From Gammaproteobacteria bacterium (GTDB lineage Bacteria > Pseudomonadota > Gammaproteobacteria > SZUA-152), in assembly GCA_021647505.1 (NCBI GenBank), contig JAKIUN010000024.1, positions 1 through 47,520 of the forward strand: DNA of 47,520 nt, in the 5' to 3' direction. This document shows, piece by piece, positions 1-17,328 of the stretch (position 1 is its first letter; each line of letters starts with the position of its first letter). The notes beneath the pieces are model-generated. The model did not search any database. It saw nothing but the letters and a program-made list of their open reading frames with translations, and was not told the DNA's origin. The translations under genes and the position numbers were made by a program.

Positions 1-117
1 ATCGGTATACTCGATAGCAATGTCCACTCGCTGCTCTGTTATGTTGAGATCCACGCTGTGGATATCCCACGGGGAATTGACACCCAGTAGCTGGCTGTAA
101 TGCTCTTCTATGTCCAT
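1..117 (-). pseudogene. ISL3-family transposase, N-terminal part, cut by the window edge
   Basis: Read on the minus strand from the ATG at 117, the first 39 codons are open to the window edge. They begin MDIEEHYSQLLGVNSPW and continue with a VDL...QRVDIAIEY stretch, the usual opening of ISL3-family transposases (LLG...PW, then a V-x-x-R-VDI strand before the zinc-finger region). An in-frame ATG at 129 is an alternative start. The rest lies outside the window, so this may be an intact gene rather than a fragment. A C-terminal ISL3 fragment in the same orientation lies at 17062-17328, at the far end of the AT-rich island. Confidence 0.6.
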
Positions 118-171
118 GGAAAAAACCATGGAAAAAACCGCCCCAATCAATGGCTAAAGCAGGGTATTTTA

Positions 172-201
172 CCGGAATTCCACACAGTTTTACGAAGAGC
201 C
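172..201 (-). repeat. candidate terminal inverted repeat of the ISL3 element
   Basis: On the minus strand the sequence upstream of the transposase start begins GGCTCTTCGTAAAACTGTG with its outer tip at 201. A terminus opening GGCTCTT about 80 bp before the transposase start fits ISL3-type ends as I recall them. The mate lies outside the window, so identity rests on position and the first bases only. The next outward bases (202-209) would be one copy of a target duplication. Confidence 0.35.
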
Positions 202-357
202 TGGTTTGTAGGGTAGAATGGTCATAAGCCTTGAGCTGTGCACCCCATGGATGATTTGTCGCTAACCATTATACAGCCAAGGCTTCTTGCGTTTTAGGGG
301 GGGCTATCTGGGGGTTGGGGTTATGCACTTATTTGGTTGAATCTAAGAAGGAAAAAT

Positions 358-1053
358 ATGCCTGTCAAGAAAACAATTAAAGAGGCGTCTATTCTGTACA
401 TTGAAGATGATGCCGTCACCAGAAAACAGTTATCAAAATATTTCAAATCAGAGTGCCGAGTGTTACATACGGCGGTAGATGGACAGGAGGGATTTGAGCT
501 ATATCAAAAACATGCCCCTGACATTGTTATTACTGATATTGAAATGCCTAAATTAAATGGACTGGAGATGGCAAAAAAAATCAGAAAACAATCTTTATCC
601 ACTCAAATTATCATTATTACTGCCTACAAAAAAGATGAGTATTTACTGCAAGCAGTCAATTTACAACTCACTCAGTATCTATTAAAACCACTAAGTATTG
701 AGAAAATTACCGATGCACTTAAGCTGTCTTCAAACTATCTGAATTGTAAAAACGCAAATACAAAAAAAATCATCATCAATAATGGATATTATGATACTTA
801 CACCAAAGAACTTGTTTGCGATGGTCAGATAGTTAATTTGTCAAAACATGAAAGAGCATTAATCGAATTGTTGGTAGAAAAGCATCCGGCACCTGTATCC
901 TATGAATCTATTAATGCAATAATTTACGATTATTGTGGTTCAAAAAATGCGATGAAGCTTTTAATCAGTGCATTAAGAAAAAAAATTAAAAAGGAATTTA
1001 TTGTTAGTGTTTCTGGGTTTGGTTATAAACTAAACCCCGATGGTGATGATTAA
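358..1053 (+). CDS. OmpR-type response regulator (receiver plus winged helix)
   Basis: A 231-residue two-component response regulator. Residues 10-120 form a receiver domain with acidic residues D17/D18 (YIEDD), phospho-acceptor D60 (ITDIEMP), T88 (IITAY) and K110 (LLKPL). Residues 135-230 look like an OmpR/PhoB winged-helix DNA-binding domain (LSKHERALIELLV, then a recognition-helix-like ALRKKI and a GFGYKL wing). I start at ATG 358 because AGAAGGA lies about 6 bases upstream; an in-frame TTG at 337 would add seven residues. The histidine kinase gene begins three bases after the stop, so the two are a cognate pair. Codon use is AT-rich, unlike the core genes after 17.4 kb. The likely targets are the envelope genes that follow (inference). 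Confidence 0.88.
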   Translation: MPVKKTIKEASILYIEDDAVTRKQLSKYFKSECRVLHTAVDGQEGFELYQKHAPDIVITDIEMPKLNGLEMAKKIRKQSLSTQIIIITAYKKDEYLLQAVNLQLTQYLLKPLSIEKITDALKLSSNYLNCKNANTKKIIINNGYYDTYTKELVCDGQIVNLSKHERALIELLVEKHPAPVSYESINAIIYDYCGSKNAMKLLISALRKKIKKEFIVSVSGFGYKLNPDGDD

Positions 1054-1055
1054 TC

Positions 1056-2345
1056 ATGCTTTTTTTAGGATTTTATTTTGGCACCTTAGCAATGATATGT
1101 TTAATTAATTTTCATTGGTATAACGTCACCAATGAAAAAAGCTATCTGTATTTAGCTATTTTTAAGACGTTTTTGATACTGATAACGCTTCAGACTAACC
1201 AGATTGTAGTCATCAATGAATTTTCTATTATTTTAAATATAAATATCATATTTATTTATGCTTTGTTATTTTCGAGAGAATTTTTAGCGTTAAATATCTA
1301 CGCCAAAAAGATGTACGTTGCCATTAATTATACGATGGGTTTCGTAATATTATATTTTACCTACAGTACCATCACTGGTGACTATTCAAATTATAACTTA
1401 CCCTATTCGCTAATATTTTCCCCATTATTCCTGTTAAGTGTTTTCATATACCTAAGAGGTTTTGAGCCAGCAAAATATTATGCACTTGCATGGGGAATTT
1501 CTCTTTCAATGACTGGGTTGAGTGACATAAACCGTTTCAACATCGCTAATTTCTATCCTGACATTCCTTTCACACTTATTGGTCATATTATCGAGTCCGT
1601 AATTCTGTCCTACGCCATATCCGTTAAGACCAATCTCATCATTAAAGAAAAAGAGGTGCAGAGTAAAATACTCATTCACCAGGCAAAACTCGCCGCTATG
1701 GGGCATATGCTGGAAAATATTTCTCATCAATGGCGGCAACCCTTAAATAGAATTTCCGCTTTTATGATTAACATGCATACGCATATCAAGGATAAATACA
1801 AAGATGAAAAGTATTTGTCAGATGCGCTCAATCAATCTCAGTTGCAACTTGAGTACATGTCAAATACCATCAATGACTTTACTAATTTCAATAAACAATC
1901 CACCGACAAAGAAAATTTTTCCGTATCGTCCGTTATTTCAGATGTTCACAATATCATTGGCCCAACACTCGAAAAAAACAGTATTTTATTCGACACAAAA
2001 ATACTCAATGATTTTTCAATGGTTTCGTATCCAAATGAACTGGCTCAGGTTATTTTGAATTTAATTCAAAATGCACAGGATGCGCTAGTCAACAGAGAGG
2101 TGGTGCAGCCGGTCATTGTAGTCATCATCGATAAAAACAGAATCAGCATACAGGATAATGCGGGAGGCATAGACGATGAAATCGTGGCGCAAATTTTTGA
2201 GCCTTATTTTACAACCAACGCTAAAACGTCATCATTAGGCTTAGGTTTGTATATGAGCAAGATTATCCTTGAAAAATATTACAATGCCAAAATAGAGCTG
2301 CACCAGACTAAACAGCGTATTTCATTTAACATTATTTTTATGTAG
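1056..2345 (+). CDS. membrane histidine kinase with 7TM sensor
   Basis: A 429-residue sensor kinase. The first ~190 residues are about seven hydrophobic helices with very short loops, resembling a 7TMR-DISM-type module but without that family's large periplasmic N-terminal domain. A short linker leads to the dimerisation helix with the phospho-accepting histidine H224 (GHMLENISHQWRQPLNR). The HATPase domain shows the N box (NLIQNAQDAL, N339), G1 (DNAGGID, 367-373), F box (IFEPYFTT) and G2 (GLGLYMSK). The GHMLENISHQWRQPL version of the H-box reminds me of kinases common in Campylobacterota and sulfur oxidisers. It starts two bases after the regulator's stop codon. The ligand cannot be read from the sequence; a sensor buried in the membrane suggests a membrane-borne signal (inference). 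Confidence 0.85.
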   Translation: MLFLGFYFGTLAMICLINFHWYNVTNEKSYLYLAIFKTFLILITLQTNQIVVINEFSIILNINIIFIYALLFSREFLALNIYAKKMYVAINYTMGFVILYFTYSTITGDYSNYNLPYSLIFSPLFLLSVFIYLRGFEPAKYYALAWGISLSMTGLSDINRFNIANFYPDIPFTLIGHIIESVILSYAISVKTNLIIKEKEVQSKILIHQAKLAAMGHMLENISHQWRQPLNRISAFMINMHTHIKDKYKDEKYLSDALNQSQLQLEYMSNTINDFTNFNKQSTDKENFSVSSVISDVHNIIGPTLEKNSILFDTKILNDFSMVSYPNELAQVILNLIQNAQDALVNREVVQPVIVVIIDKNRISIQDNAGGIDDEIVAQIFEPYFTTNAKTSSLGLGLYMSKIILEKYYNAKIELHQTKQRISFNIIFM

Positions 2346-2535: not shown

Positions 2536-3627
2536 ATGAAAATGCGAACAAAATCATCCTGCTTGACTGGTTTTTCTTTAATCCTTACCGCTGTTTTTCT
2601 GCTTGCCGCTTGCGACTCTGAACCACCTTCATCTGAAGATAAAACCGAAGCCTTGGTCAGACCCGCAAAGTTGATAGAGATTGGCCAAACAAAAAGTGAT
2701 GATTTTCTGAATTACCCAGCAGTAATTAAATCGGCACAGCATTCAACCTTGAGCTTTGAAGTCGGTGGCGTGTTGAAGGCGCTGCTGGTTGTAGAAGCGC
2801 AAGAGGTAAAGCAGGGAGAGGTACTGGCAAAACTGGATCAACGAGACTTGCAAACACAACTAAAATCAGCCAAATCAGAATTTGACAATGCCAATGCAGA
2901 ATACCAGCGTGCGGTACGGCTGATGAAAGAGGATGCCATCTCACGCAGTAGTCTTGAGGAGCGAAAATCCAAACGTGATGTGCGTAAAGCACAACTTGAA
3001 ACAGCGGAAAAAGCGTTGCAGGATTCGGTGCTGATTGCCCCCTATGATGGAAATATTGCCAGGATACACGTAAAAGAACGGCAAGCTGTTCAAGCGGGTG
3101 CGGAGGCTATTAGTATCATTAGCAGAGGAAAACTCAAGGCCACCATCAATTTACCTTCTAGTATAATTGCCCGGACTGGTAAATCCCAAGCACTGGCAAC
3201 CGACTCCTATATCATATTGAATTCGGCATCTGATCGCCGTATCCCCGTCGCCTTCAAAGAAGCGTCTTTAGAGGCTGATGCGGATTCACAAACGTATGAA
3301 GTTGTCTTCGTTTTCGACACCCCTGAAGATTTAATTGTATTGCCAGGTATGAATGCCGTCGTCTGGTTTAGAGACCCTGGCAGATCGACTTCTGATAGTA
3401 ACAAGATACGTATTCCGCTTACCGCAATTGCCACCGATGGCGATCAAAAATATGTCTGGATTGTCGATCAAAATACGATGCTGGTTTCGAAAAGAAATAT
3501 TGTGATTGAAGCCAATGTCGGCACATTGGTTGGGGTCACCAATGGCCTGAAACCGGGTGATACCATTGTTGCATCAGGTGTTTCTGCACTTTCTGAAGGG
3601 ATGAAGGTGTCTAGATGGTCAAAATAG
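2536..3627 (+). CDS. RND efflux periplasmic adaptor (membrane fusion lipoprotein)
   Basis: A 363-residue HlyD/AcrA-type adaptor linking an inner-membrane RND pump to its outer-membrane channel. It has a lipoprotein signal ending FLLAAC, giving C26 followed by Asp at +2, the usual inner-membrane retention signal. Then come a biotinyl-lipoyl-like half (LSFEVGGVLKALLV...GEVLAKLDQRDL, about 70-105), an alpha-helical hairpin (about 105-155), the second lipoyl half (DSVLIAPYDGNIARIHV), a beta-barrel domain and a membrane-proximal domain ending GLKPGDTIVASGVSAL. It is the first gene of a three-gene operon: the pump follows after 49 bases. A short AT-rich gap (2346-2535) separates it from the two-component genes, so a promoter there could be regulator-controlled. 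Confidence 0.9.
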   Translation: MKMRTKSSCLTGFSLILTAVFLLAACDSEPPSSEDKTEALVRPAKLIEIGQTKSDDFLNYPAVIKSAQHSTLSFEVGGVLKALLVVEAQEVKQGEVLAKLDQRDLQTQLKSAKSEFDNANAEYQRAVRLMKEDAISRSSLEERKSKRDVRKAQLETAEKALQDSVLIAPYDGNIARIHVKERQAVQAGAEAISIISRGKLKATINLPSSIIARTGKSQALATDSYIILNSASDRRIPVAFKEASLEADADSQTYEVVFVFDTPEDLIVLPGMNAVVWFRDPGRSTSDSNKIRIPLTAIATDGDQKYVWIVDQNTMLVSKRNIVIEANVGTLVGVTNGLKPGDTIVASGVSALSEGMKVSRWSK

Positions 3628-3676: not shown

Positions 3677-6600
3677 ATGAACATCGCCGAATTTTCCATC
3701 AAAAATAAAATTCTTAGTGTTATCGCTATTCTAATTTGTCTGTACGGCGGTTGGAATGCTTACCAGACAATGCCGCGGTTTGAAGATCCAGAGTTTACCA
3801 TCCGAACAGCTTTGATATTTACACCTTATCCAGGGGCGAGTCCCGAGGAAGTAGCTACTGAAGTGTCACAGCCGCTAGAGACTGCCTTACAGCAATTACA
3901 GGAAGTCAAAAAAATAAAATCCAAGTCTACTGCGGGTATGTCTGAGATTACGGTTGAGATTAAATACAAATTCTCGAAAGACAAAACGGCCTTGCAGACT
4001 GTGTGGGCCAAAATGCGCAATAAGATAAAAGATACGGAATCTTCACTGCCACAAGGTACCGGAACACCATTAGTGAATGATGATTTTGGCGATCTTTATG
4101 GTTGGTCTTATTTCATCACAGGTGAAGACTATAGCCCCGCAGAACTACGCACCTATGCCAAGGCGCTGCAAAAAGAAATTTTACAAGTTAAAAATGTCGG
4201 TAAAGTCGCACTGGCCGGTGAGCAACAAGAACAGATTTTTGTTGAAATAACGCGTGAACAATCGGCTGCGCTAGGCGGCTCGATATCCAGGCTTTACGAT
4301 ATTCTCAGTCAGCAGAATGCAGTAGTATCAGCAGGCAGTGTCAATATTGGCGACCAACGATTGATCATTGATCCATCGGGTGCCATTGATACCATTGAAT
4401 CCATTAAAAACCTGCTGGTATCAACATCGTCTGATGGAAAAATCACCTATCTTTCTGACATTGCTAACGTTTATCGTGGCTACAAAACACCGGCGCAACA
4501 AATCATTCGTTACGATGGAAAATTTGCCATTGCCTTAGGAGTGTCCAGTACCACTGGCGGCAATGTGGTGGAAATAGGTGCAGCGGTCGATAAAAAAATT
4601 CGTGATGCCGAAAGTCGCCGACCTTTAGGGATAGATGTTTCAACTTATTATAATCAGGGCGAGGTTGTTAAAGCATCGGTTGATAATTTTGTAGTTAACG
4701 TTATTGCGGCTTTGGTCATTGTCATTGTTACCTTGCTTATTTTTATGGGTTTGCGCTCAGCGATAGTGATCGGCTTTATCCTGATTCTCACCATTGCAGC
4801 GACGCTACTCACCATGAAATTAATGGGCATTCCCATGCATCGAATCTCTCTGGGTGCGTTGATCATCGCACTGGGGATGATGGTGGATAATGCCATTGTG
4901 GTCACTGAGGGAATCCTGGTGGGCGTGCAAAAAGGTATTAAGAAGCTAGATATTGCCAAAAAAATTGTTACTCAGACTAAATGGCCATTATTAGGCGGGA
5001 CATTAGTGGGCATTATTGCCTTTGCACCGATTGGTTTTGCGCCAGGCCAAACCGCTGAGTATACCGGCGATCTGTTTTGGGTGATTATGATTTCCTTACT
5101 GTTTAGTTGGGTTTTTGCGATTACCATCACGCCGCTGAGTTGTTATGTGTTATTTCCTGAAGCTAAAGATAATGCCGAGGCAGAAAAAGAAGGCGCTTTT
5201 TACCGCAATTATAAAAAAATGATGCGCAGCGCACTGCATCTGCGTTGGTTGGTTATTCCTGCCGCCGCAGGATTATTAGTTCTCTCTGTTTGGGGCGCGC
5301 AATTTATGACGCAAGGGTTTTTCCCCAAGTCCACCACACCACAACTGGTGGTCGAGTACTGGTTGCCAGAAGGCACTCGTATAGAGCGCACTGAAAAGGA
5401 CATGAAGGAAATAGAAACCTTTATTCGCCAATTGGATAACGTGAAGTCGGTACAAACCTTGATTGGACAAGGCGGCATTCGCTATATGCTCACGTATGGA
5501 CCCGAGTCGCCTAACAGTTCTTACGGCCAATTTCTGGTGAAGGTCGATGATTACCGTAAAACCGATGCCATGATGCCAAAAATTCAGGAGTTCATTGAGG
5601 CCAACTACCCTGCTGCCGATGCTAAGGCATGGCGCTTTATTTTGGGGCCTGGCGGCGGTTCAGCGATTGAAGCTGAATTCAGAGGGTCAGACCCACAGAT
5701 TTTACGTCAACTGGCGAATCAGGCCACTGACATTATGCGTGCCGAACGCACTTTGTCAGTCAAAAATGACTGGCGTGATCCGGTGAGCATTATCGAGCCG
5801 ATTTATTCCGAAACCAAAGGCCGCCGTGCTGGCGTATCAAGACAAGACTTGGCAGATGCCCTAACTCGGCATTACTCCGGAAAGCAGGTCGGCGTTTACC
5901 GGGAAGGTGAAGACCTTATTCCCATTATCGCTCGCAGCCCAGAGACGGCAACCGCCTCGATTGATGACATTAAAAGCCTTCAGGTTTTGAGTTCGGCAAC
6001 AGGCAAAACATTACCGATTGCTCAGGTGACAGATGGTTTTAGAACTGTTTGGCGTGATGGACAGGTTCGCAGTGAAAATCGAATATTGGTGATTAAGGCG
6101 CAAGCTGATCCGTATCCTGATGAGCTGCCGGCCACCTTATTGAATCGTATGCGCGCAGATATTGCCGCTATCGAATTGCAAAACGGTTACACCTTGCAGT
6201 GGGGTGGGGTGGAGAAAGACTCCGCTGAATCTAGCGAAGATCTAATGTCGACGATTCCGATGGGACTGTTGGCCATGGTGTTGGTGGTGGTTATTCTATT
6301 TGGCAAAATCAAACAGCCGCTGGTGATCTGGCTAGTTGTCCCTGGCCTGTTTATTGGCGTGGTGTTTGGTCTGGTGGTTACAGGTGTTCCTCTCGAATTC
6401 ATGGGAATCTTAGGAATTCTTTCTCTGTCAGGACTATTGATTAAAAATGCCATCGTGCTCGTCGATCAGATGGATTTTGAAGTTGACAGTGGTAAAGCGC
6501 GATTTGATGCCGTAGTCGACGCTGCCACCAGCAGAGTTAGACCCGTTATGATGGGGACATTAACAACAGTGCTCGGTGTAACCCCGCTGTTTTTTGATGC

Positions 6601-6736
6601 CTTTTTTCAATCCATGGCCGTGGTTATTGTTTTCGGTTTGACGTTTGCTACTTTGTTAACGTTGCTGATTATACCTTTGCTTTACGCCGTATTTTTTAAC
6701 ATTCAATCAGGAGAGACCACTCATGAGAGTCAGTAA
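3677..6736 (+). CDS. RND efflux pump inner-membrane transporter (AcrB/HAE1-like)
   Basis: A 1019-residue resistance-nodulation-division transporter of normal length for the family. It has an N-terminal TM helix, a first large periplasmic loop (porter and docking domains, about 35-335), six TM helices, a second large loop (about 550-850) and the final TM block. The proton-relay helix reads GMMVDNAIVVTEG, with D404 present but the second acidic position of AcrB (D408) replaced by N405, as in several HAE1 subfamilies. The relay lysine is K923 (LLIKNAIVLVDQ). It exports small amphiphilic or hydrophobic compounds by proton antiport, but the substrate cannot be told from sequence. Its 3' end overlaps the outer-membrane factor gene by 14 bases, showing a translationally linked operon. 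Confidence 0.92.
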   Translation: MNIAEFSIKNKILSVIAILICLYGGWNAYQTMPRFEDPEFTIRTALIFTPYPGASPEEVATEVSQPLETALQQLQEVKKIKSKSTAGMSEITVEIKYKFSKDKTALQTVWAKMRNKIKDTESSLPQGTGTPLVNDDFGDLYGWSYFITGEDYSPAELRTYAKALQKEILQVKNVGKVALAGEQQEQIFVEITREQSAALGGSISRLYDILSQQNAVVSAGSVNIGDQRLIIDPSGAIDTIESIKNLLVSTSSDGKITYLSDIANVYRGYKTPAQQIIRYDGKFAIALGVSSTTGGNVVEIGAAVDKKIRDAESRRPLGIDVSTYYNQGEVVKASVDNFVVNVIAALVIVIVTLLIFMGLRSAIVIGFILILTIAATLLTMKLMGIPMHRISLGALIIALGMMVDNAIVVTEGILVGVQKGIKKLDIAKKIVTQTKWPLLGGTLVGIIAFAPIGFAPGQTAEYTGDLFWVIMISLLFSWVFAITITPLSCYVLFPEAKDNAEAEKEGAFYRNYKKMMRSALHLRWLVIPAAAGLLVLSVWGAQFMTQGFFPKSTTPQLVVEYWLPEGTRIERTEKDMKEIETFIRQLDNVKSVQTLIGQGGIRYMLTYGPESPNSSYGQFLVKVDDYRKTDAMMPKIQEFIEANYPAADAKAWRFILGPGGGSAIEAEFRGSDPQILRQLANQATDIMRAERTLSVKNDWRDPVSIIEPIYSETKGRRAGVSRQDLADALTRHYSGKQVGVYREGEDLIPIIARSPETATASIDDIKSLQVLSSATGKTLPIAQVTDGFRTVWRDGQVRSENRILVIKAQADPYPDELPATLLNRMRADIAAIELQNGYTLQWGGVEKDSAESSEDLMSTIPMGLLAMVLVVVILFGKIKQPLVIWLVVPGLFIGVVFGLVVTGVPLEFMGILGILSLSGLLIKNAIVLVDQMDFEVDSGKARFDAVVDAATSRVRPVMMGTLTTVLGVTPLFFDAFFQSMAVVIVFGLTFATLLTLLIIPLLYAVFFNIQSGETTHESQ

Positions 6737-8102
6737 ATTTATCATCTTACCGGCCATGGTGTTGTTGACTTCATCTTGTGCTCTCTTCAATACTGCAAAA
6801 CAAGATAGCCCGCAAGCGGTCAAACAGGCAGTTGAAACGCCTGAATCTTGGGCGATAAAAGCTAAGCAGTATGATGATGATTCGATCAATTGGCTAAAAA
6901 CCTTCAATGACCCAATGATGCTCAAGCTCATAGCCGAAGGTAAAGCCAATAATATCAATTTACGGGTGGCAGCGGGCAACATGGATAAAGCTTGGCTATT
7001 GGCTAAGCAATCCGGCGCGGCACTCAAACCCACCGCTGATCTGTCTCTGGGTGGAACTCAATCGGGTAGTGTTGATGGAGGTGCCTCGAACAGCAATGTG
7101 ACGGTTGGTTTACAAGCCAGTTGGGAACTGGATGTTTGGGGTCGTATGAAATCGGGCGTTGATGCAGCGACGGCAAGTGCACAAGCTGCGGAAGCTGATT
7201 ACATTTTTGCGCAACATTCACTGAGTGGGAATATTGCAAAAACCTATTTTAAAGTCATTGAAGCCAAGTTACAGGCTGATATTACACGTAAGAATCTGGC
7301 AACGCTTGAAAAGGGCATGCGTATTACCCAGGTAAAATATGACAATGGGCTCTCTTCAGGGCTAGATGTCGCACTCAATCGTACCAATTTGGCCTCTGCA
7401 AAAGAGCAATTGATTCAAATTGAAGGTTCCGAGCGCGATGCGTTGAGAGCGTTGGAAGTATTACTCGGTCGTTACCCATCTGCGAGCGCAGACATCCCCA
7501 ATATTTTGCCAGATTTACCGCTGCAACCCCCGGCCGGCATCCCCTCTGAACTATTGGAACGCCGCCCCGATATTGTTTCTGCCGAGAGAAAAATTGCTTC
7601 GGCATTTAATGCCACCGATCAGGCAAAAGCGGCTCGACTCCCCCGATTTTCATTAACGGCTTCAGTGAATAGTGCCTCGAGTTCGTTGTCTGACGTTCTC
7701 GATCCTGCCAACGCCGTCTGGCAATTGGCTGCAAATTTAATGGCTCCTTTAATGGATGGTGGCAGACGTAAAATAGACATTGAAATTGCCACAGTGGAGC
7801 AGAAACAGGCCATCGCAAATTATGCACAAGCCGCGTTAACTGCTTTTTCAGAAGTAGAAGATAACCTGGATCAAGGGGCTGTTCTAGCCCGTCGAGAAAC
7901 CGCTTTAAGTGAGGCATTCAGGCACAGCAATAAAGCCTATTCAATCGCAGAATTAAGATATAAAGAAGGCGAAATAGAATTACTGGATACGCTCCAAATT
8001 CAACAACAGGCCATCTCCGCTGAGAGCCAGTTATTATCCATCAAACGGGCACAACTGGAACAGCGCATCAATTTTTATCTGGCGTTGGGTGGCAGTTGGT
8101 AA
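6723..8102 (+). CDS. outer-membrane efflux factor, NodT/OprM-type lipoprotein
   Basis: A 459-residue TolC-superfamily channel. The signal peptide ends LLTSSC (C19), so the mature protein is probably a lipid-anchored outer-membrane factor. It shows the twofold repeat of the family: two sets of strand-forming segments (SLGGTQSGS..., WELDVWGRM; and LTASVNSASSSL..., LMAPLMDGGRRK) and long amphipathic helices (AQAAEADYIFAQHSLSGNIAKT). The GIPSELLERRPDIVSAERK segment between repeats is characteristic of NodT-type members. It begins inside the pump gene and completes a tripartite pump. It is separated by only 19 bases from the next gene, a K+ channel, which may be co-transcribed. Confidence 0.92.
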   Translation: MRVSKFIILPAMVLLTSSCALFNTAKQDSPQAVKQAVETPESWAIKAKQYDDDSINWLKTFNDPMMLKLIAEGKANNINLRVAAGNMDKAWLLAKQSGAALKPTADLSLGGTQSGSVDGGASNSNVTVGLQASWELDVWGRMKSGVDAATASAQAAEADYIFAQHSLSGNIAKTYFKVIEAKLQADITRKNLATLEKGMRITQVKYDNGLSSGLDVALNRTNLASAKEQLIQIEGSERDALRALEVLLGRYPSASADIPNILPDLPLQPPAGIPSELLERRPDIVSAERKIASAFNATDQAKAARLPRFSLTASVNSASSSLSDVLDPANAVWQLAANLMAPLMDGGRRKIDIEIATVEQKQAIANYAQAALTAFSEVEDNLDQGAVLARRETALSEAFRHSNKAYSIAELRYKEGEIELLDTLQIQQQAISAESQLLSIKRAQLEQRINFYLALGGSW

Positions 8103-8644: not shown

Positions 8645-9322
8645 ATGAAATTTAGAAATTTATTGATAGTAACAATGACAGTATTAGTTTTAACATCTTG
8701 TACTACCACTTCTACTAAAATGTCAGAAACTTGGAAAGCGCCAGATTTTAAAACCAAGAACTTTAAAAACTTACTCATTTTAAGTGTTACTCAAGATGGT
8801 GTAGATAGACGGATGTTTGAAGTTTCTATGGTAGAGGCACTATCAAAAGCTGGTGTGGGATCTACTGCTAGTTATACAGTTTTACCAAATGGAGGCAAGC
8901 TCAATGAATCGACAGTTACTGAGGTCGTTAAGAAATATAAATACGATGCTGTTATAGTTACAAAATTGATTACTGTTTCCACAGACATTCAACATGTTGC
9001 TGCACAATCATATATAGCTTATCAAGCTGGCTACCCATCTGCCTACTATAGCTCTGGTTATAATGGATTTTATGCACCAGGCTATTATAATCACTATGCT
9101 ACTTCTTACACTATAGTTAATGAACCAACTTATAACATTGAAACAAAGACAGCCGTAGTGGAAACCAATCTTTACGACGTGGAAACTGAAAAATTAATAT
9201 GGTCTGGTCGATCTGCAACTATTAACCCAATGTCAGCAGGTAATGCTATTCCTTCTATTACATCTATGATTGCTAAAACATTGAAAGAAGAAAAAATAGT
9301 CATGGATAATAATGGAAATTGA
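8645..9322 (+). CDS. tyrosine-rich lipoprotein, unknown function
   Basis: A 225-residue predicted lipoprotein: the signal ends VLVLTSC (C19) followed by Thr, so probably sorted to the outer membrane. The early part (WKAPDFKTKNFKNLLIL, then D-x-x-x-R-x-x-FE and YDAVIVTKL) resembles the DUF4136-like lipoprotein pattern, in which a beta strand and FE helix are followed by a variable linker. The middle (about 118-155) is a Tyr/Gly/Ser-rich, probably disordered segment, then an amyloid-like strand pair (VVETNLYDVETEKLIWSGRS). I do not recognise a specific function. A 30-codon ORF starting at 8566 overlaps its start but looks spurious. The gene is strongly AT-rich. Confidence 0.75.
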   Translation: MKFRNLLIVTMTVLVLTSCTTTSTKMSETWKAPDFKTKNFKNLLILSVTQDGVDRRMFEVSMVEALSKAGVGSTASYTVLPNGGKLNESTVTEVVKKYKYDAVIVTKLITVSTDIQHVAAQSYIAYQAGYPSAYYSSGYNGFYAPGYYNHYATSYTIVNEPTYNIETKTAVVETNLYDVETEKLIWSGRSATINPMSAGNAIPSITSMIAKTLKEEKIVMDNNGN

Positions 9323-9369: not shown

Positions 9370-10923
9370 TTGAATCGCATCCGAGCACAAGTAAAAAAGG
9401 TAGTTTTTCGATTCCAGATTTGTCTGGTCGTTCTGCTTGTTGGCGGCTGTGCCACGGTTCCGTTGGATCAGCCCAAGTCCCACAGTGAAGCAATCACAGA
9501 CACTGGAGACATGACGCACTTCGGCAAATTAGCAAACAGTTGGGCAGATATTCACGATCAAAAGTCTGGGTTCTTCCCTCTGGTGCAGGGTATGGACGCA
9601 CTTGGCGCAAGACTGGATATGGCTAGTCAAGCCGAGAAGAGTCTCGATCTGCAATACTTCCTGATGAAAGACGACACAGCCGGTCGCGTCATTAAGACTG
9701 CCTTGTTGGAGGCTGCTGACCGAGGAGTGCGCGTACGACTTCTCTTGGACGACATATTTACAACAGCAACGGATCGGAATTTATCGCTGATCAATCAGCA
9801 CCAAAATATTGAGGTTCGGCTATTTAATCCGATATCCCGTCGCGGACTCCACTTTTTCAACCTCGTTGGAGATTTCAAGCAAGCCAATCGGCGCATGCAC
9901 AACAAGACCTTCACCGTCGACAATGCCCTCAGCATCGTCGGGGGGCGTAATCTTGCAGATGAATATTTTCAATTGAAAGAAGAATCGGTGTTCTCTGATT
10001 TCGACATCCTGGCTTTTGGACCGATCGTGCGAGAAATTTCGATATCGTTTGACACCTACTGGAATCACGCGCTTGCCGTACCGGTAGAGCAGGTATTGAA
10101 GCGCCAGGATGCCGATTCGCTGGAAACTGTGCGAAGTGGCATATCCGAGGAAGCTGACAATATTTACGCCAGCGTTTACCGACAGGCACTTGATAGCGAT
10201 CTGCTGCAAGATCTGATTACCGGAAAGCAAGCTCTTTTTGTGGCCGATGCCAGAGTCATGTCGGACGATCCTGATAAGCTTGTTAACAAGGCTGGTGCGG
10301 AAGAACACATGCAGCTTGTGACTGAACTCGAGGTGCTCCTGCGCGATGCGAACCGAGAAATCATGTTCCTTTCTCCTTACTACGTGCCCGGCGACGACGG
10401 CGTTCAGTATGTGCGCGATCTGGTCAGCAGGGGTCTACGTGTTGTCATGGTCACCAACTCTCTCAGGTCAACCAATCAAATTATGGTGCACTCGGGATAT
10501 GCGCGCTATCGAAAGGACGTGATTGACGCGGGCGTCGAACTCTATGAGGTGCGTGCAAATGCGGGACGAGATGCACATGGTGGCGAAAGCCCGGAAGCAC
10601 TCACAATGCATACAAAATTAATACTCATTGATCGTCGCTACCTGTTTGTTGGTTCCCTGAATCTAGATCCGCGTTCAATTGAGCTTAATTCTGAGTTTGG
10701 GTTGTTGATTGAATCTGAGGCATTAGCGAAAATAATTGCTTCGGGAATCGACGATGCGATCACAACACTTGCTTACCGTGTCGCAAAAGACAACAAGGGC
10801 CATCTAGAATGGCGAGGCATCGTTAACGGCGTAGAGACCATAGAAACGAACGAGCCTCAGGCGAGCGGATGGCGGCGATTCAAGGCCTGGTTCATGAAAA
10901 TAGTGCCGGAAAGCCAACTCTAG
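9370..10923 (+). CDS. phospholipase D-family lipoprotein, cardiolipin synthase C-like
   Basis: A 517-residue PLD-superfamily enzyme with two HKD motifs: H177-x-K179-x4-D184 (MHNKTFTVDN, then GGRN) and H414-x-K416-x4-D421 (MHTKLILIDR, then GSLNLDPRS). Length and layout fit ClsC/YmdC-like phosphatidyltransferases, which make cardiolipin from phosphatidylglycerol plus a second phospholipid. Start choice: the only start that keeps the signal peptide is TTG 9370. It gives VVLLVGGC with lipidated C27, whereas the next ATG lies beyond the lipobox. A lipoprotein form is unusual enough to note; the domain would face the periplasm. Base composition is less AT-rich than the flanking genes, hinting at a separate origin within the island. 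Confidence 0.85.
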   Translation: MNRIRAQVKKVVFRFQICLVVLLVGGCATVPLDQPKSHSEAITDTGDMTHFGKLANSWADIHDQKSGFFPLVQGMDALGARLDMASQAEKSLDLQYFLMKDDTAGRVIKTALLEAADRGVRVRLLLDDIFTTATDRNLSLINQHQNIEVRLFNPISRRGLHFFNLVGDFKQANRRMHNKTFTVDNALSIVGGRNLADEYFQLKEESVFSDFDILAFGPIVREISISFDTYWNHALAVPVEQVLKRQDADSLETVRSGISEEADNIYASVYRQALDSDLLQDLITGKQALFVADARVMSDDPDKLVNKAGAEEHMQLVTELEVLLRDANREIMFLSPYYVPGDDGVQYVRDLVSRGLRVVMVTNSLRSTNQIMVHSGYARYRKDVIDAGVELYEVRANAGRDAHGGESPEALTMHTKLILIDRRYLFVGSLNLDPRSIELNSEFGLLIESEALAKIIASGIDDAITTLAYRVAKDNKGHLEWRGIVNGVETIETNEPQASGWRRFKAWFMKIVPESQL

Positions 10924-10970: not shown

Positions 10971-12176
10971 ATGGAAACTCAACCCATTGTTATTGTAAAT
11001 TTTATGACATTCACCATAGGCATAATGGTGTATTTCTCTGGGCGACTATTGACTCAGCGTGTTGGATTTTTACGCGAATATAATATTCCCGAACCTGTGA
11101 CCGGAGGGATTCTGGCATCTCTTGTGACTTTAGCGCTATTTTTGATTTTTAACATTGAACTCTCTTTTGAAATGGACATACGCAATACGTTGCTGATTTA
11201 TTTTTTTACGGCCATTGGCTTGAATGCGCGCTTTAGCGATCTTCTTAAGGGGGGCAAGCCGTTGCTGATTTTGCTTGTGATAACGCTCAGCTATATTGTC
11301 TTCCAAAATTTAATCGGTGTTACTGCGGCTCAGCTGTTGGGGTTGCCCAACGCGATGGGAGTGTTGACAGGTTCAGCGTCACTCTTGGGTGGGCACGGTA
11401 CGGTGATTGCGTGGGCGCCTGAAATTTCCGCTAATCACGGCGTTCCAAATGCGCTTGAGTTAGGTGTTGCATCTGCCACTCTTGGCTTGATCATTGCCAG
11501 TTTGCTAGGTGGACCCATTGCAAAATTTTTGATGGCCCGGCACAAAATTGTAGGCAGTTCGGGTGAAGAGTTAACCGTTGGTACGTCATATAAGGATGAA
11601 GCGACGGAAAAACTGTCTCATGTTAATTTTATGGCTGTGATGCTTGTTGTCCATATGGCGATAATATTTGGATATATGCTCAATGAGGTAGTGATCGAAA
11701 TAGGTATAAGGTTGCCGTTGTTTGTAACATGCCTGTTTGTTGGTATTTTAATGTCAAATACAATCCCATTGATGTTTAAAAAAATTCCATGGCCTGCGCA
11801 TACACCTGCTCTTGCGATGTTTTCTGAATTCTCTCTGGGGCTATTTATTGCTATGTCCCTGATGGGGATGCAATTATGGGCGGTTGCAGATCTTGCGGGG
11901 CCATTGATCATTCTATTAGGCTTGCAGGTACTTGTTGCCACCTTGTTTGTTGTGTTTATTTTCTTTAGGATTATGGGAAGTGACTATCAATCCGTTGTTT
12001 TAAGCGCGGGTTTTACAGGTTTTGTGCTTGGGGCAACACCAACAGCCATTGCCAACATGTCTGCTGTTACGAAATCGCATGGTGCCGCCCCAGCCGCCTT
12101 TATTATTCTACCTCTCGTTGGTGCGTTCTTTGTTGATCTCACCAACGCTTTCGTCATCCAGTTTTTCCTGGGCTAG
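10971..12176 (+). CDS. gltS: sodium/glutamate symporter
   Basis: A 401-residue integral membrane protein of the ESS family, matching E. coli GltS in length. It shows the two inverted-repeat halves, each with a glycine-rich reentrant region: GSASLLGGHGTVIAWAP in the first, and AGFTGFVLGATPTAIANM in the second. The N-terminus carries the conserved IPEPVTGGI after TM1. It takes up glutamate with Na+. It stands alone between a lipid-modifying lipoprotein gene and the patatin gene. Glutamate import commonly accompanies osmotic or K+ adjustment, which would match the nearby K+ channel (inference). Confidence 0.92.
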   Translation: METQPIVIVNFMTFTIGIMVYFSGRLLTQRVGFLREYNIPEPVTGGILASLVTLALFLIFNIELSFEMDIRNTLLIYFFTAIGLNARFSDLLKGGKPLLILLVITLSYIVFQNLIGVTAAQLLGLPNAMGVLTGSASLLGGHGTVIAWAPEISANHGVPNALELGVASATLGLIIASLLGGPIAKFLMARHKIVGSSGEELTVGTSYKDEATEKLSHVNFMAVMLVVHMAIIFGYMLNEVVIEIGIRLPLFVTCLFVGILMSNTIPLMFKKIPWPAHTPALAMFSEFSLGLFIAMSLMGMQLWAVADLAGPLIILLGLQVLVATLFVVFIFFRIMGSDYQSVVLSAGFTGFVLGATPTAIANMSAVTKSHGAAPAAFIILPLVGAFFVDLTNAFVIQFFLG

Positions 12177-12332
12177 CACAGACTGATAATAGGGGAGCGG
12201 TGCAATTACTAAACTAAGAGTGCGATGGTCATTTCCACTACTTAAACATTTATGCAGATACGTTGAATATTCCAATGACTATGGCGAAAGCCTTATTTAT
12301 TATGATCAACATGTACAGCGGTGAGGATTAGC

Positions 12333-13574
12333 TTGAATATAGTTAAACGATCTCAATGTTCTGTTTCTGTTTTGTTGGGTGTCATGCTGATATCTTTATC
12401 GGCATGTCAAACAGCGCCACCAAGGTCAATCACTGAGCAGGAACTTGCTGACGGACGACAGGAATATCTTCGTTCATATCAATCAGACTTAGAAAAAATT
12501 TCTAACAAAATAGAAGCACGCATGGTGCATGAATATAAATATGCCCAACTATCAATCAATAATGAATCACAAAGTATTGACATGCTTGTTATCTCCGGTG
12601 GAGGGGCTTTCGGTGCATTTGGTCTAGGTTTTCTTAAAGGCTGGGGGGAGGTCAATGAAGCGAATTATAAACGACCTCAATTTGATTATGTAAGCGGTAT
12701 TAGTACGGGGGCGTTAATTGCACCTTTTGCATTCATCGGGACTGAAACTGCATACGACCATGTTATTTCGTTATATAAAAGCCTGGGGCCTGATTCAGTT
12801 AGAGCGCAAGGTCTTCTTTCATATCTGCCTGGTAATGTTGCTTTATATGATGTTTCGAACTTGAGGGAAAAAATTAAGTCAACGATCACTGAAGAGTTAG
12901 TCAAACGTATAAAAATAGGTGCTACTGAAAATCGACAGTTAGTGGTCGGCGCAACAAACATGGATTACGGCATGCTGCGTGTGTGGGATATTGCTCAAAT
13001 CACATCAGAAGCATCTACAGGAGATGCTGCAAAACAAATAGTCGACATACTACATGCATCTACAGCATTCCCCATTCTGTTTCCACCCGTAATAATTGAT
13101 AATATAATGTATATAGATGGTGGTGCGACGATGCAGATTGTTGGCGGAATAAATGATCGTAGTTGGGCATATGATTTTGAAAAAATGACTTTAAATATCG
13201 TTAATTTGAAGGAGCCGGTAAAAATTCGAGTATGGATTATAGTTAATGAAAAATTATTGCCAGACTCTAAAGTTGTTCAGTCAAATTGGCCATCGGTAGC
13301 GGAACGTAGTATGAAGACACTTCTTAACGCCTCAATACTTAAGAGCATTCAGGATGCTGATACTTTTGTTAACCTTATTAATCAGCGTCCTGAATTTGAC
13401 GCACAGATGAAGTTTGTCACTATCCCACAAGATTTTCCTATTGCTGATTCTGATGTGATGTTTGAGCCAGAAATAATAAAAAAACTGCTTAAATTAGGGA
13501 AGAAAATGGGGGCGGATCCTATGAGTTGGAAAGAAGAAGCGTTGCGCCCCGGCGCTCCTTTTGAACTGAATTGA
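12333..13574 (+). CDS. patatin-like phospholipase lipoprotein
   Basis: A 413-residue lipoprotein with a patatin hydrolase domain. The signal ends LISLSAC (C25). The oxyanion loop is SGGGAFGAFG, the nucleophile S124 sits in GISTG, and the dyad aspartate D262 in IDGGAT. Patatin-type enzymes cleave acyl chains from phospholipids. I prefer TTG 12333 because GAGG lies about six bases upstream; GTG 12321, in frame, would add four residues and lacks its own ribosome site. Only five bases separate the stop from the cis/trans isomerase gene, so the two are co-transcribed. A lipidated patatin next to an enzyme that isomerises membrane acyl chains suggests joint action on phospholipids (inference). Confidence 0.85.
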   Translation: MNIVKRSQCSVSVLLGVMLISLSACQTAPPRSITEQELADGRQEYLRSYQSDLEKISNKIEARMVHEYKYAQLSINNESQSIDMLVISGGGAFGAFGLGFLKGWGEVNEANYKRPQFDYVSGISTGALIAPFAFIGTETAYDHVISLYKSLGPDSVRAQGLLSYLPGNVALYDVSNLREKIKSTITEELVKRIKIGATENRQLVVGATNMDYGMLRVWDIAQITSEASTGDAAKQIVDILHASTAFPILFPPVIIDNIMYIDGGATMQIVGGINDRSWAYDFEKMTLNIVNLKEPVKIRVWIIVNEKLLPDSKVVQSNWPSVAERSMKTLLNASILKSIQDADTFVNLINQRPEFDAQMKFVTIPQDFPIADSDVMFEPEIIKKLLKLGKKMGADPMSWKEEALRPGAPFELN

Positions 13575-13579
13575 ATTGA

Positions 13580-16033
13580 GTGTTATTGCTTTTGTCTAAA
13601 ATTAGAAAGGTGTTTTATAAAGTGTCCATACAAAAACAAAGTTTCGTTGTCTACTTTTTTATGACTATTCTTATATTGTCAGGTTGTACTCTAAGCAAAG
13701 TAGACATCACACAGGAGCAGACAACAGTCGATGAAAATTTATTGCTCACGCTGCCGAGTGAACCTATTTCCTACTTCAATAGCGTCAAGCCTCTGCTTGA
13801 ACGCCGTTGTATCTCATGCCATGGTTGTTACGATGCGCAATGCCAGTTGAAACTGACTTCTATAGAAGGCATACAACGCGGAGCCAACAAAGACAAAGTG
13901 TATGACGGTACCCGGATGTTTGGTGTTAATCCCACGCGCCTGATGATTGATGCTAAAACTACAGCACAGTGGCGTAAGAAAAATTTTCACACGGTGCTCA
14001 ACGAAGGTGAAAATACGCCCAGAAAAAATCTGCAAGAGTCTACATTATATAAGTTTTTACATTTAAAACAGCGCCATCCTCAGGCACGCATTGGCATGTT
14101 GTCAAATGATTTTGATCTCTCCCTGGATCGGAAACAAACCTGTCCAACATCTGATGAATTTCAGAGTTACGCACAAAAACACCCTAAGGGAGGTATGCCT
14201 TACGCCATGCCTAACCTTAATCATCAGGAATATACAACTCTCGTGCAATGGATAGCCCAGGGCTCACCGGTTGACTCAAAGCCGGTAGCATCAAAGCAAA
14301 CAACGAAGCAAATAGCGCAGTGGGAACAATTCTTCAACAAACGCAGTAGCAATAAAGAAAAACTGATGAATCGTTATCTCTACGAACATTTATTCCAGGC
14401 GCATATTCACTTTACTGATGCGCCGCCGCGTGAATTTTTTCGACTGGTTCGCTCTCGCACAGCGCCGGGGCAGGAGATTGACGAAATAGCGAGCACACAC
14501 CCTTATGATGATCCTGGAGTGGCTTCTTTTTATTACCGATTGCGTCCCTACCATGCCTCTATTGTGGCAAAGAACCATGTTGTATATGAGCTGTCCCCAC
14601 AGAAGATGGATCGCTACCGAGAGTTGTTTTTGAAGCCGGATTATAAGGTTGAAAACCTGCCTTCCTATGACCCCGGTATTACAGCAAATCCATTTAAGGT
14701 TTATCAATCTATTCCTGCTAAACTGCGTTATCGGTTTTTACTGGATGATGCCAGATTCTTTATTGAAGGGTTTATTAAAGGGCCTGTATGCCGTGGTCAA
14801 GTTGCGCTAAATGTCATTGAAGATAATTTTTGGGTTTTCTTTCATAACCCTGATCTAGATTCAATAACGGATGATGCTGATTTTTTAGCGGCTATTTCGA
14901 ACGATCTGGATATACCCGCAGGCGATACTTTAAATATTTTAGCTGCGTCGACAACATACAAGAAAAAAGTAGAACGCTATTGGGAGGCTTTACGCGAAAA
15001 TTTTACTAACATATCAGGACAGGCTGATGTGAAACAAGCGCTCGCGGCATCCATTTGGGATGGAGGTGGCACAAACCCGAATGCCGCGTTGACTATCTAT
15101 CGACACTCCGACAGTGCCTCGGTTCACTTCGGGCTGACTGGCCGTCCTCCAGAAACAGCCTGGGTGATTAATTACCCATTATTGGAACGTATTCACTATT
15201 TGCTGGTAGCGGGTTTTGATGTGTACGGTAATGTTGGACATCAATTGAATACCAGGGTCTACATGGATTTTCTCAGGACGGAAGGTGAAAACAACTTTCT
15301 GATGTATCTTCCTGCAAGTAAACGCAGGGCTATCCGAGATTCCTGGTATTTAGGCATTCGTGAAGGTCAAAACAAGAAACTGGACGACAGTAGCGGGTGG
15401 CTGGATAAAGAAATCGTGATTGGCTACCAAACCGACGACCCGCAAGCCGAATTATATCAGCACCTCCAACAGCGTCTGGGTAAGATGACTGGCCCAATAG
15501 ATTTGCTAAACCGCTGCAAATCTCAATCATGTATAGCTGCTGCATATAACACAGCACCTTCCGCCGAACAAAAGGCCGACATGGCATTGGCAAAAGTGGC
15601 TGATATTAATGGAGCCATACTGCAGGTTTTTCCTGATCTCGCCTTCGTTAGAATCAGGGATGCTGAGCAGCAAGCAGAATTTGCCTATACATTAATACGC
15701 AATAAATCCTATAAAAATGTAAGTTCTATGCTGACAACTGTATCTTATAATGATAGTGATGTTGACAATGACACGCTGACGGTAATGAAAGGTTTGCATG
15801 GATCCTATCCCAATTTTTTCTTTGATATTCAATTGCAGCAAGTGGATGATTTTGCTGAACGCTATGCCGCAATAAGTAGCCGTAAGGACTATGAGCAGTT
15901 TGTATCAATATATGGTGTGCGCCGCACTCGTACTGAATTTTGGGCAATTACCGATTGGTTTCAGGATTACTACGCGAAGCAGGAACCGGTGCTTTCTGGG
16001 GTGTTTGATTTGAGTCGATACAACAACCGATAG
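13580..16033 (+). CDS. cti: fatty acid cis/trans isomerase, haem-binding lipoprotein
   Basis: An 817-residue protein of the Cti family (Pfam CTI). Near the N-terminus is a cytochrome-c-type haem site, C77-x-x-C80-H81 (RRCISCHGC), characteristic of the family. Later family-like segments include CRGQVALNVIEDNFWVFF and GRPPETAWVINYPLLERI. Cti converts cis-unsaturated acyl chains of membrane phospholipids to trans, stiffening the membrane without new synthesis, and is known for solvent tolerance in Pseudomonas. The N-terminus carries a hydrophobic stretch ending LILSGC (C36), so it appears lipidated, whereas characterised Cti is described as periplasmic. The start is uncertain: GTG 13580 is taken, but a later GTG at 13622 has AGAAAGG upstream and still keeps the signal. 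Confidence 0.88.
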   Translation: MLLLLSKIRKVFYKVSIQKQSFVVYFFMTILILSGCTLSKVDITQEQTTVDENLLLTLPSEPISYFNSVKPLLERRCISCHGCYDAQCQLKLTSIEGIQRGANKDKVYDGTRMFGVNPTRLMIDAKTTAQWRKKNFHTVLNEGENTPRKNLQESTLYKFLHLKQRHPQARIGMLSNDFDLSLDRKQTCPTSDEFQSYAQKHPKGGMPYAMPNLNHQEYTTLVQWIAQGSPVDSKPVASKQTTKQIAQWEQFFNKRSSNKEKLMNRYLYEHLFQAHIHFTDAPPREFFRLVRSRTAPGQEIDEIASTHPYDDPGVASFYYRLRPYHASIVAKNHVVYELSPQKMDRYRELFLKPDYKVENLPSYDPGITANPFKVYQSIPAKLRYRFLLDDARFFIEGFIKGPVCRGQVALNVIEDNFWVFFHNPDLDSITDDADFLAAISNDLDIPAGDTLNILAASTTYKKKVERYWEALRENFTNISGQADVKQALAASIWDGGGTNPNAALTIYRHSDSASVHFGLTGRPPETAWVINYPLLERIHYLLVAGFDVYGNVGHQLNTRVYMDFLRTEGENNFLMYLPASKRRAIRDSWYLGIREGQNKKLDDSSGWLDKEIVIGYQTDDPQAELYQHLQQRLGKMTGPIDLLNRCKSQSCIAAAYNTAPSAEQKADMALAKVADINGAILQVFPDLAFVRIRDAEQQAEFAYTLIRNKSYKNVSSMLTTVSYNDSDVDNDTLTVMKGLHGSYPNFFFDIQLQQVDDFAERYAAISSRKDYEQFVSIYGVRRTRTEFWAITDWFQDYYAKQEPVLSGVFDLSRYNNR

Positions 16034-16094
16034 CTTGGCCGATGAAATTAGTTTAGTGAAAAACACCTATATAAACTGGTAAATTGCATAGATC

Positions 16095-16994
16095 ATGATG
16101 AGCAAATTTTCTTATTCACAAATTTTATTAGCATTGGCAATAGTTTTTTTAGCCTTTTCTTTGATAAAAATATCCAGTCACATCCCTGAAGTTCTCCACG
16201 TTATTGATAAAACCAGTCCACAAGTAGATACCATTGTTGATGAAATTACGTTAATAAGAGAGGAAGTGAAATTAGTTCGCCTGTTAGTTGCCAAACAAAC
16301 CCCTGAAATTTTAGCGCAAGTTGAAAATGCCTTACCTGTCATTGAGCAAGTTGTCGCCGAAAGCGAACGCTATTCCAGTCAATTGCCTAGCATTATTGAA
16401 CAAATAGAAAAATTAACACAAAATGTTCAACAACTAGAGAAAAGTCTGCCAAGTATCTTACAACGCGTGGATGCCGTAACGGCTACTACTAATAACACCA
16501 TTGCAGAAGTTGCCTTATGGCGACCACATTCACGTGATTATTTAGCTGAAATGGCCTTGTATAGAGAAAATATTCCTCAATATTTAACACGAGCTGAATA
16601 TATTGTTAGTGATGCAAAAAGTATTGGAAAAGAAGCCAGTAGTGGCATAGCGACAGGGTTGTTTAAGGGAGTTATTTCAATGCCTTTTGACGTGATCTCC
16701 GGGCTTGTGGGTATTGTTGGCTTGAGTTCTCTCTCTGCTAAGCATTTAACTGCTACTGACGTTAATTTAATGAAAGAGAAAATCATTGCACTATTAAATG
16801 ATGAGAACCAGACTAAAGCTGTTTGGCAAAATGTTGATAGTCGCAATCGAGGCCGTATTATTAAAGGCGAGCTTATTAGAAAAAATCAAAAAAATTGTCA
16901 TTACCTTACTTTTAAAAATTATTTTGGCAAAGAAAAAGAAACGTTAAAAAAACTTATGTGTCTTGATAGTGAAGGTTTATGGAAAGTGATGTAA
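16095..16994 (+). CDS. membrane-anchored coiled-coil protein, unknown
   Basis: A 299-residue protein I do not recognise as a named family. An N-terminal TM helix (about 9-24) is followed by a long heptad-rich region (about 30-150) with regularly spaced I/V/L and repeated P-x-I/V units. Next come a glycine-containing hydrophobic stretch (about 190-215, GLFKGVISMPFDVISGLVGIVG) and a basic C-terminal domain with W-x-N, S-x-x-x-G, C-x-x-LTF and CLDSEGLWKV. That tail pattern recalls the end of 17-kDa surface-antigen/RT0821-like lipoproteins. Both tail cysteines could pair. It lies 61 bases after cti and is the last gene before the ISL3 remnant, so it may belong to the same transcript. Confidence 0.7.
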   Translation: MMSKFSYSQILLALAIVFLAFSLIKISSHIPEVLHVIDKTSPQVDTIVDEITLIREEVKLVRLLVAKQTPEILAQVENALPVIEQVVAESERYSSQLPSIIEQIEKLTQNVQQLEKSLPSILQRVDAVTATTNNTIAEVALWRPHSRDYLAEMALYRENIPQYLTRAEYIVSDAKSIGKEASSGIATGLFKGVISMPFDVISGLVGIVGLSSLSAKHLTATDVNLMKEKIIALLNDENQTKAVWQNVDSRNRGRIIKGELIRKNQKNCHYLTFKNYFGKEKETLKKLMCLDSEGLWKVM

Positions 16995-17061
16995 TACCAA
17001 CAATTCCCGCCAAATCTGTTTGAGCTCAGATAGAGGCCCAATTGTATAAAAAATACAGTGC

Positions 17062-17328
17062 CTACGGGGCCATTTTCAGGCCGCCACAATAAAACAATAT
17101 GCTATTTCTGAATCCATCGAATGAACGATAACCCCTGGCATTCGACTTGACGGTCTGAATCTTCGAGTTCAGTCCTTCGACAACCGCGTTACTAATCCGA
17201 TGTTGGAAATAGGTTAGCAAGTTGGGTAAGTGACTTTTAATCATTCTGGCTTTTTCTTTGATCGGCTCTAAGCGGCTTCTAATAGCCCATGAATACCACT
17301 TGTCAAAATGTCGCTCAGCACATCCTGA
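17062..17328 (-). pseudogene. ISL3-family transposase remnant, C-terminal end
   Basis: On the minus strand an 89-codon stretch reads SGCAERHFDKWYSW, AIRSRLEPIKEKARM, then ISNAVVEGLNSKIQ and ends FYCGGLKMAP with a stop at 17062. These are the conserved C-terminal blocks of ISL3 transposases (WAIRSRLEPIK; NA-x-EGLN-x-KIQ; the final GGL). The frame stays open for a few codons upstream but homology seems lost near 17328, so the catalytic N-terminal two thirds are gone. Orientation matches the N-terminal ISL3 sequence at 1-117. Composition jumps to GC-rich core DNA immediately to the right. Confidence 0.75.

What the first reader, a model, noticed from the sequence alone, without database searches (positions are those of the whole stretch)
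1..17328. Envelope-remodelling island bracketed by two ISL3 transposase pieces
Seen: AT-rich DNA from about 0.3 to 17.3 kb, an N-terminal ISL3 transposase sequence at the left end and a C-terminal ISL3 remnant at the right, both minus strand, and a sharp change to GC-rich core after 17.4 kb. Contents are nearly all envelope functions: a two-component system, RND pump, K+ channel, cardiolipin-synthase-like lipoprotein, GltS, patatin lipoprotein, cis/trans isomerase and a coiled-coil membrane protein. Known: RND pumps and Cti are both parts of solvent tolerance in Pseudomonas. Inference: this is one horizontally acquired module that senses membrane perturbation and answers by efflux, ion release and lipid change.
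Basis: partly seen in the sequence, partly recalled or inferred. Interest (0 to 1): 0.62.

Follow-up and report, generated by a model that had tools for sequence, protein, structure and literature searches.

The report
Patchwork island of acquired envelope genes
A 17-kb stretch of AT-rich, mostly foreign genes for pumping out toxins and altering membrane lipids has been patched together in this bacterium; it is not one clean mobile unit, but some of the same genes keep turning up side by side in unrelated bacteria, which hints that they work together under membrane stress.

Summary
Composition and gene content hold up; the IS bracket does not. The window is a whole contig (C59). Its left ISL3 piece is the contig end inside an insertion sequence with about 20 copies, which breaks many contigs. 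The right piece is a decayed fragment lacking both ends. No empty site was found. The 12 genes are real: GC 0.42 against a genome median of about 0.57. The flanking glc cluster (0.67) is itself an outlier, so the GC step is exaggerated.

The genes are a mosaic. The fatty-acid isomerase Cti groups with lipoprotein Ctis of other families, and a clade with congeneric Ctis is rejected (AU p=7e-5). The MexK/TriC-type pump is 91% identical to one in another family, but the next gene only 65%. No searched relative carries the set.

Yet parts recur together: MFP-RND-OMF-GltS with Cti downstream (G165); Cti, coiled-coil protein, AbiE, same response regulator (G216); PLD lipoprotein with patatin (G200, G071); pump with K+ channel. 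So "one module" is partly supported, as a loosely recurring envelope-stress repertoire. Most specific hypothesis: the patatin lipoprotein, 5 bp upstream of cti, releases free fatty acids that Cti needs to isomerise phospholipids, with the coiled-coil protein as a Cti partner.

The parts
1..202 (-). 5' end of a multicopy ISL3-family IS (terminal repeat GGCTCTTCGTAAAACTG, start of transposase), cut by the contig end
337..1053 (+). OmpR-type response regulator (RR); 63% identical over 75 residues to the RR after Cti-COIL in G216
1056..2345 (+). 7TM-DISM histidine kinase (HK), SHQWRQPL H-box
2536..3627 (+). RND adaptor (MFP), lipoprotein
3677..6736 (+). RND permease, closest solved structures MexK and TriC; 91% aa / about 83% nt identical to G278
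6723..8102 (+). NodT-family outer-membrane channel (OMF); only 65% identical to G278
8122..8475 (+). 2TM K+ channel, TVGYGD filter
8645..9322 (+). lipoprotein, marginal DUF4136 similarity (E=0.003)
9370..10923 (+). PLD/cardiolipin-synthase-like lipoprotein, two HKD motifs
10971..12176 (+). GltS glutamate symporter (above the NCBIfam equivalog cut-off); 67% identical to the GltS next to the RND operon of G165
12321..13574 (+). patatin-like phospholipase lipoprotein (PAT) with oxyanion hole, GISTG and DGG
13580..16033 (+). lipoprotein-type fatty acid cis/trans isomerase (CTI), CISCH heme motif; 5 bp after PAT by the longest ORF
16095..16994 (+). COIL: N-terminal TM, long coiled coil, C-terminal 17-kDa surface-antigen-like domain; possible Cti partner
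17060..17365 (-). decayed ISL3 fragment (C-terminal part of transposase), about 95% identical to other genome copies, without 3' terminal repeat and N-terminal half

Best explanation
A mosaic of horizontally acquired envelope genes in three or four transcription units (RR-HK; MFP-RND-OMF-Kch; lipoprotein, PLD, GltS; PAT-CTI-COIL), assembled over time at a spot rich in IS and repeat debris rather than carried in as one IS-bounded transposon. It draws on a repertoire of envelope-stress genes that recur together, in shuffled order, in unrelated gammaproteobacteria. Most likely working, inferred: the 7TM-DISM kinase and OmpR-type regulator respond to a membrane or envelope signal; the MexK/TriC-type pump exports hydrophobic compounds; the patatin lipoprotein cuts phospholipids to release free fatty acids, which serve as substrate for and license the heme lipoprotein Cti to make trans fatty acids and stiffen the membrane; COIL assists Cti at the membrane; the PLD lipoprotein adjusts phospholipid head groups; the K+ channel and GltS alter ion and osmolyte balance. 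Shown here: gene identities, catalytic motifs, lipoboxes, spacing, phylogeny of CTI, recurrent neighbourhoods. Not shown: any activity, co-regulation or signal; operon boundaries are read from spacing only.
For: GC/GC3 outlier. CTI outside its family clade, AU p=7e-5, and of the lipoprotein type unlike congeners. PAT not found in the rest of the family beyond one marginal hit. RND 91% in another family, with a break to 65% at OMF. Recurrent neighbourhoods: G165, G216, G311, G200, G071, G252, G047, G025; in control loci (17 glcD loci, 14 random 20-kb blocks) no GltS, PLD, PAT, CTI, COIL or K+ channel hit. COIL has one other clear homologue in 331 class genomes, 22 bp behind a Cti. P. aeruginosa Cti isomerises phospholipid chains in liposomes only if free fatty acids are present (PMC11727003).
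Against: No other genome examined has the full set, nor PAT directly beside CTI: about 60 Cti-bearing loci were scanned by motif, and only two had any patatin within the fetched DNA, neither abutting Cti. Gene order differs everywhere. GltS and K+ channels have many unrelated roles. The TCS has no demonstrated targets and no shared upstream repeat was found. Several supporting contigs are short.
Confidence: 0.5

Rival explanations
1. A single composite transposon or translocatable unit: two same-orientation ISL3 copies carried the whole island in one event, and the right copy decayed afterwards.
For: Same-orientation ISL3 sequences on both sides. Uniformly low GC and all genes on one strand. 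G216 has COIL followed by RR, as if the two ends of the island were joined in a circle.
Against: The left copy is one of about 20 and coincides with the contig end. The right copy has lost both ends. RND and OMF have different histories. GC3 varies from 0.23 to 0.53 between genes. No empty site.
Confidence: 0.15
2. Independent unrelated insertions: the genes share an envelope theme only because such genes are common in genomic islands; there is no functional unit.
For: Different nearest relatives for different genes; Cti usually solitary in relatives; no genome with the full set.
Against: Recurrent linkage in G165, G216, G311, G200 and G071 but not in control loci.
Confidence: 0.3
3. An acid or osmotic fitness island comparable to the E. 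coli gadE-mdtEF-hdeAB island: pump, glutamate transporter, K+ channel and lipoproteins serve pH/osmotic stress, with lipid enzymes as add-ons.
For: In G165 and G311 the same pump type sits beside GltS, an HdeA-type gene (HdeA by Pfam in G165) and DUF3313/DUF4136 lipoproteins.
Against: No HdeA or glutamate decarboxylase among the island's genes; GltS imports glutamate with sodium and is not the GadC antiporter (general knowledge).
Confidence: 0.05

Closest known systems
Solvent-tolerance functions of Pseudomonas (RND pumps plus Cti)
   Same: RND efflux and Cti, both known contributors to membrane-stress tolerance
   Different: In this island they are neighbours, the pump is MexK/TriC-like, and a patatin, a PLD lipoprotein, GltS and a K+ channel are added; Cti is a lipoprotein
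MexJK / TriABC RND pumps
   Same: RND permease matches MexK (E=1e-157) and TriC (6vej, E=6e-151) end to end
   Different: Carries its own OMF gene and a K+ channel gene in the same run; substrates unknown
Periplasmic Cti of P. aeruginosa (PMC11727003)
   Same: CTI Pfam family, CxxCH heme motif
   Different: Lipobox-bearing form, in an operon-like arrangement with a patatin lipoprotein and COIL
E. coli acid fitness island (gadE-mdtEF-hdeAB)
   Same: RND pump plus glutamate transport plus lipoproteins in the wider recurring cluster (G165, G311)
   Different: No HdeA/Gad enzymes here; different transporter types; Cti and lipid enzymes

Membership tests
Composite transposon with ISL3 ends | Two transposition-competent flanking IS copies | tested here: not met
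   Right copy lacks 3' terminal repeat and N-terminal half; left copy cut by contig end
Composite transposon with ISL3 ends | Target-site duplication or empty site in relatives | tested here: inconclusive
   Left flank not in the contig; relatives have different genes upstream of glcD; the kinase found there in G001 and G014 gave no match in G000
Genomic island (foreign DNA) | Atypical composition and absence from close relatives | tested here: met
   GC 0.42 vs about 0.57; the gene set was not found in the same-genus and same-family genomes examined (RND in three of them)
Genomic island (foreign DNA) | Integrase or attachment site | tested here: not met
   No integrase-like ORF in the island's ORF list and no tRNA in the contig
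Fatty acid cis/trans isomerase (Cti) | CTI domain with CxxCH heme-c motif and export signal | tested here: met
   PF06934 E=9e-261; CISCH at residue 77 and lipobox
Fatty acid cis/trans isomerase (Cti) | Cis-trans isomerase activity | not testable with these tools
   Needs an enzyme assay
MexK/TriC-type RND permease | End-to-end similarity greater than to other RND classes | tested here: met
   MexK/TriC bit scores 508-530 vs at most 215 for the others
Cardiolipin synthase-like PLD | Two HKD motifs; cardiolipin synthase activity | tested here: inconclusive
   Two HKD motifs, but below the NCBIfam equivalog cut-offs for cardiolipin synthases; activity not testable
Patatin-like phospholipase | Oxyanion-hole GGG, G-x-S-x-G serine, DGG aspartate | tested here: met
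   PF01734 E=1e-23

The most novel reading that the evidence does not exclude
PAT, CTI and COIL form a dedicated membrane-stiffening unit: a patatin phospholipase lipoprotein releases free fatty acids that switch on a lipoprotein Cti, and COIL is a conserved membrane-anchored Cti partner, controlled by the linked 7TM-DISM/OmpR-type two-component system. This would answer what supplies the free fatty acids that Cti needs in vitro.
Probability: 0.22. Interest if true: 0.65.

Novelty: new variant of a known kind. Interest (0 to 1): 0.42.

Why it matters
Cti changes membrane rigidity quickly and is studied as a stress-tolerance factor, yet what lets it act on phospholipids in cells is open. A phospholipase gene and a membrane coiled-coil gene next to cti, the latter also linked to cti in another family, give two concrete candidates to test. 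The recurring pump/GltS/K+ channel/lipid-enzyme neighbourhoods suggest that gammaproteobacteria trade envelope-stress functions as loosely linked parts.

Tried and rejected
IS-bounded transposon: rejected as shown above. Empty site: the kinase found upstream of glcD in G001 and G014 gave no match in G000, so there was no neighbour to test. Plasmid origin: no near match of the island in 72,556 plasmids, and patatin only as <60% identical homologues. Close patatin relatives in 84,980 species genomes: none found by exact-pattern scan. PAT next to Cti elsewhere: a first motif scan was too strict and found none; a relaxed one found only two distant patatins. AlphaFold of COIL from two sequences was poor overall (pLDDT 51); only the C-terminal beta domain is moderately confident, so no fold search was made. 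Defence reading of PAT/PLD: weak partial hits to CBASS lipases and DrmC only. Shared regulator sites upstream of the transcription units: none beyond 9-10-mers. Consensus promoters in the island are no more frequent than in shuffles. No donor for the two-component system was sought by its own class-wide search.

Full report
Observation. The window is all of contig C59 (47,520 bases) of a 3.74-Mb, 117-contig genome, 98% complete. ORFs of the claimed kinds fill 337-16994, all on the plus strand, and Pfam confirms them: response regulator, 7TM-DISM histidine kinase, RND adaptor/permease/outer-membrane channel, 2TM K+ channel, PLD protein, GltS, patatin, CTI. Catalytic motifs are intact: two HKD motifs in PLD, GGGAFG/GISTG/DGG in the patatin, TVGYGD in the channel, CISCH in CTI, and lipobox-like sequences in PLD, patatin and CTI.

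Composition. The island has GC 0.423. Fourteen 20-kb samples of the same genome give a 2-kb-window median of 0.572, with 3% of windows at or below 0.43. The sharp step at 17.4 kb is real, but it joins two outliers: the glc/aminotransferase cluster at 17.4-23.7 kb has GC 0.67 and GC3 about 0.87, against a 95th percentile of 0.77 for GC3.

The ISL3 bracket. Searching the genome with either piece finds about 19-22 places, nearly all at contig ends: the IS is a repeat that breaks the assembly. The left piece is simply the contig end inside such a copy, with its outer terminal repeat intact at about position 202. The right piece (17060-17365) is about 95% identical to two other copies, but stops before the 3' terminal repeat and lacks the N-terminal half; its protein matches DDE_Tnp_ISL3. 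Both are in the same orientation. Because the fragments belong to the genome's own IS family, the island is unlikely to be an assembly contaminant, but the bracket is no evidence of one transposition. Upstream of glcD the relatives carry other genes. The arrangement IclR, dehydrogenase-like, DUF1537-like kinase seen in G001 and G014 (names from reading the sequences, not from a family search) could not be traced here, since the kinase gave no match in G000, so no empty site could be shown.

Vertical or horizontal. CTI occurs in 14 of the 23 other f1-family genomes in the relatives set, at 46-56% identity, and none of these loci holds another island gene by tblastn. The window CTI bears a lipobox, whereas those of its genus and nearly all of its family do not. 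In a tree of 45 Ctis it pairs with G226 (family f80, 64%) within a clade of Ctis from other families that are of the lipoprotein type; forcing it with family members is rejected (p-AU 7e-5) (quick tree, LG+G4). The patatin was not found in the rest of the family beyond one marginal hit, and PLD has only distant paralogues in the genus. The RND permease is 91% identical (about 83% in DNA) to G278 of another family, but identity falls to about 65% (58-70% in DNA) at the RND/OMF junction, and in G278 a DUF3313 lipoprotein gene follows instead of the K+ channel. GC3 ranges from 0.23 to 0.53 within the island. These are signs of a mosaic.

Shared neighbourhoods. They do, in parts. G165: K+ channel, MFP-RND(60%)-OMF(48%)-GltS(67%), DUF4136 and DUF3313 lipoproteins, HdeA, then CTI (46%) and a second GltS. 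G216: CTI C-terminus (43%), COIL (48%) 22 bp later, an AbiEi/AbiEii pair, then the response regulator (63% over 75 residues), all in one orientation. G311: GltS divergent from MFP-RND, with a DUF3313-like lipoprotein next to the pump. G200: PLD followed by patatin; G071: patatin, K+ channel, PLD. K+ channel-like genes lie beside the pump in G252, G047, G161 and, weakly, G025. In 17 glcD loci and 14 random blocks none of the GltS, PLD, PAT, CTI, COIL or K+ channel queries hit. The controls are fewer and partly shorter than one would wish, and the loci were found by searching with island genes, so this is an apparent enrichment, not a formal test.

COIL. Among 331 genomes of the class the only other clear homologue is the one in G216, directly behind a Cti. 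It has an N-terminal helix suited to a TM segment, a long helical (coiled-coil) stretch and a C-terminal beta domain; the G216 homologue passes the Pfam cut-off for the 17-kDa surface antigen domain (PF16998), and the window copy hits it weakly.

Mechanism. Purified P. aeruginosa Cti acts on free fatty acids, and on phospholipid chains in liposomes only when free fatty acids are also present; the role of the free acids is unexplained (PMC11727003). A patatin phospholipase gene 5 bp upstream of cti (longest-ORF start; a later start would widen the gap) could supply them. That step, the role of COIL, and control by the two-component system are inference. RND type is by sequence; substrates are unknown. 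A search for papers combining Cti and patatin found none whose title or abstract is on this subject.

Verdict. Observation partly confirmed, interpretation partly supported: foreign, envelope-themed, but a patchwork rather than one IS-borne module. Interest comes mainly from the PAT-CTI-COIL unit and the recurring partial neighbourhoods.

Noticed in passing
203-212 (+), 17427-17436 (-), 45648-45657 (+): GGTTTGTAGG occurs three times (0.04 expected in shuffles), twice at the island edges; possibly GTAG-headed REP-like repeats, perhaps linked to the Y1 (RAYT-like) transposase at 44325-44870
   Followed up: partly
17400-23700: glcDEF/aminotransferase cluster is a GC-rich outlier (GC 0.67, GC3 0.87) next to the AT-rich island; it may itself be acquired
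   Followed up: partly
45784-47377: GmrSD-like plus RiboL-PSP-HEPN gene pair; the first gene matches PADLOC NsnA and PD-T4-2_A, a possible anti-phage pair at the AT-rich right end of the contig
   Followed up: partly
45455-45540: Inverted repeat of GGGGACAGACCACAATTAA type near the Y1 transposase; a similar word occurs beside an ISL3 copy in L004
   Followed up: no
L274 (G216:C108) 5-3343: AbiEi/AbiEii toxin-antitoxin pair sits between COIL and the response regulator; genes from the two ends of the window island are neighbours there, as in a circular permutation
   Followed up: partly
L267/L268 (G165:C2): Larger cluster with RND, two GltS genes, HdeA, DUF3313/DUF4136 lipoproteins and Cti, reminiscent of an acid or envelope fitness island
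   Followed up: partly
L061 (G001), L062 (G014): Shared IclR-like, dehydrogenase-like 735-aa and DUF1537-like kinase genes upstream of glcDEF; the kinase gave no match in the window's genome
   Followed up: partly
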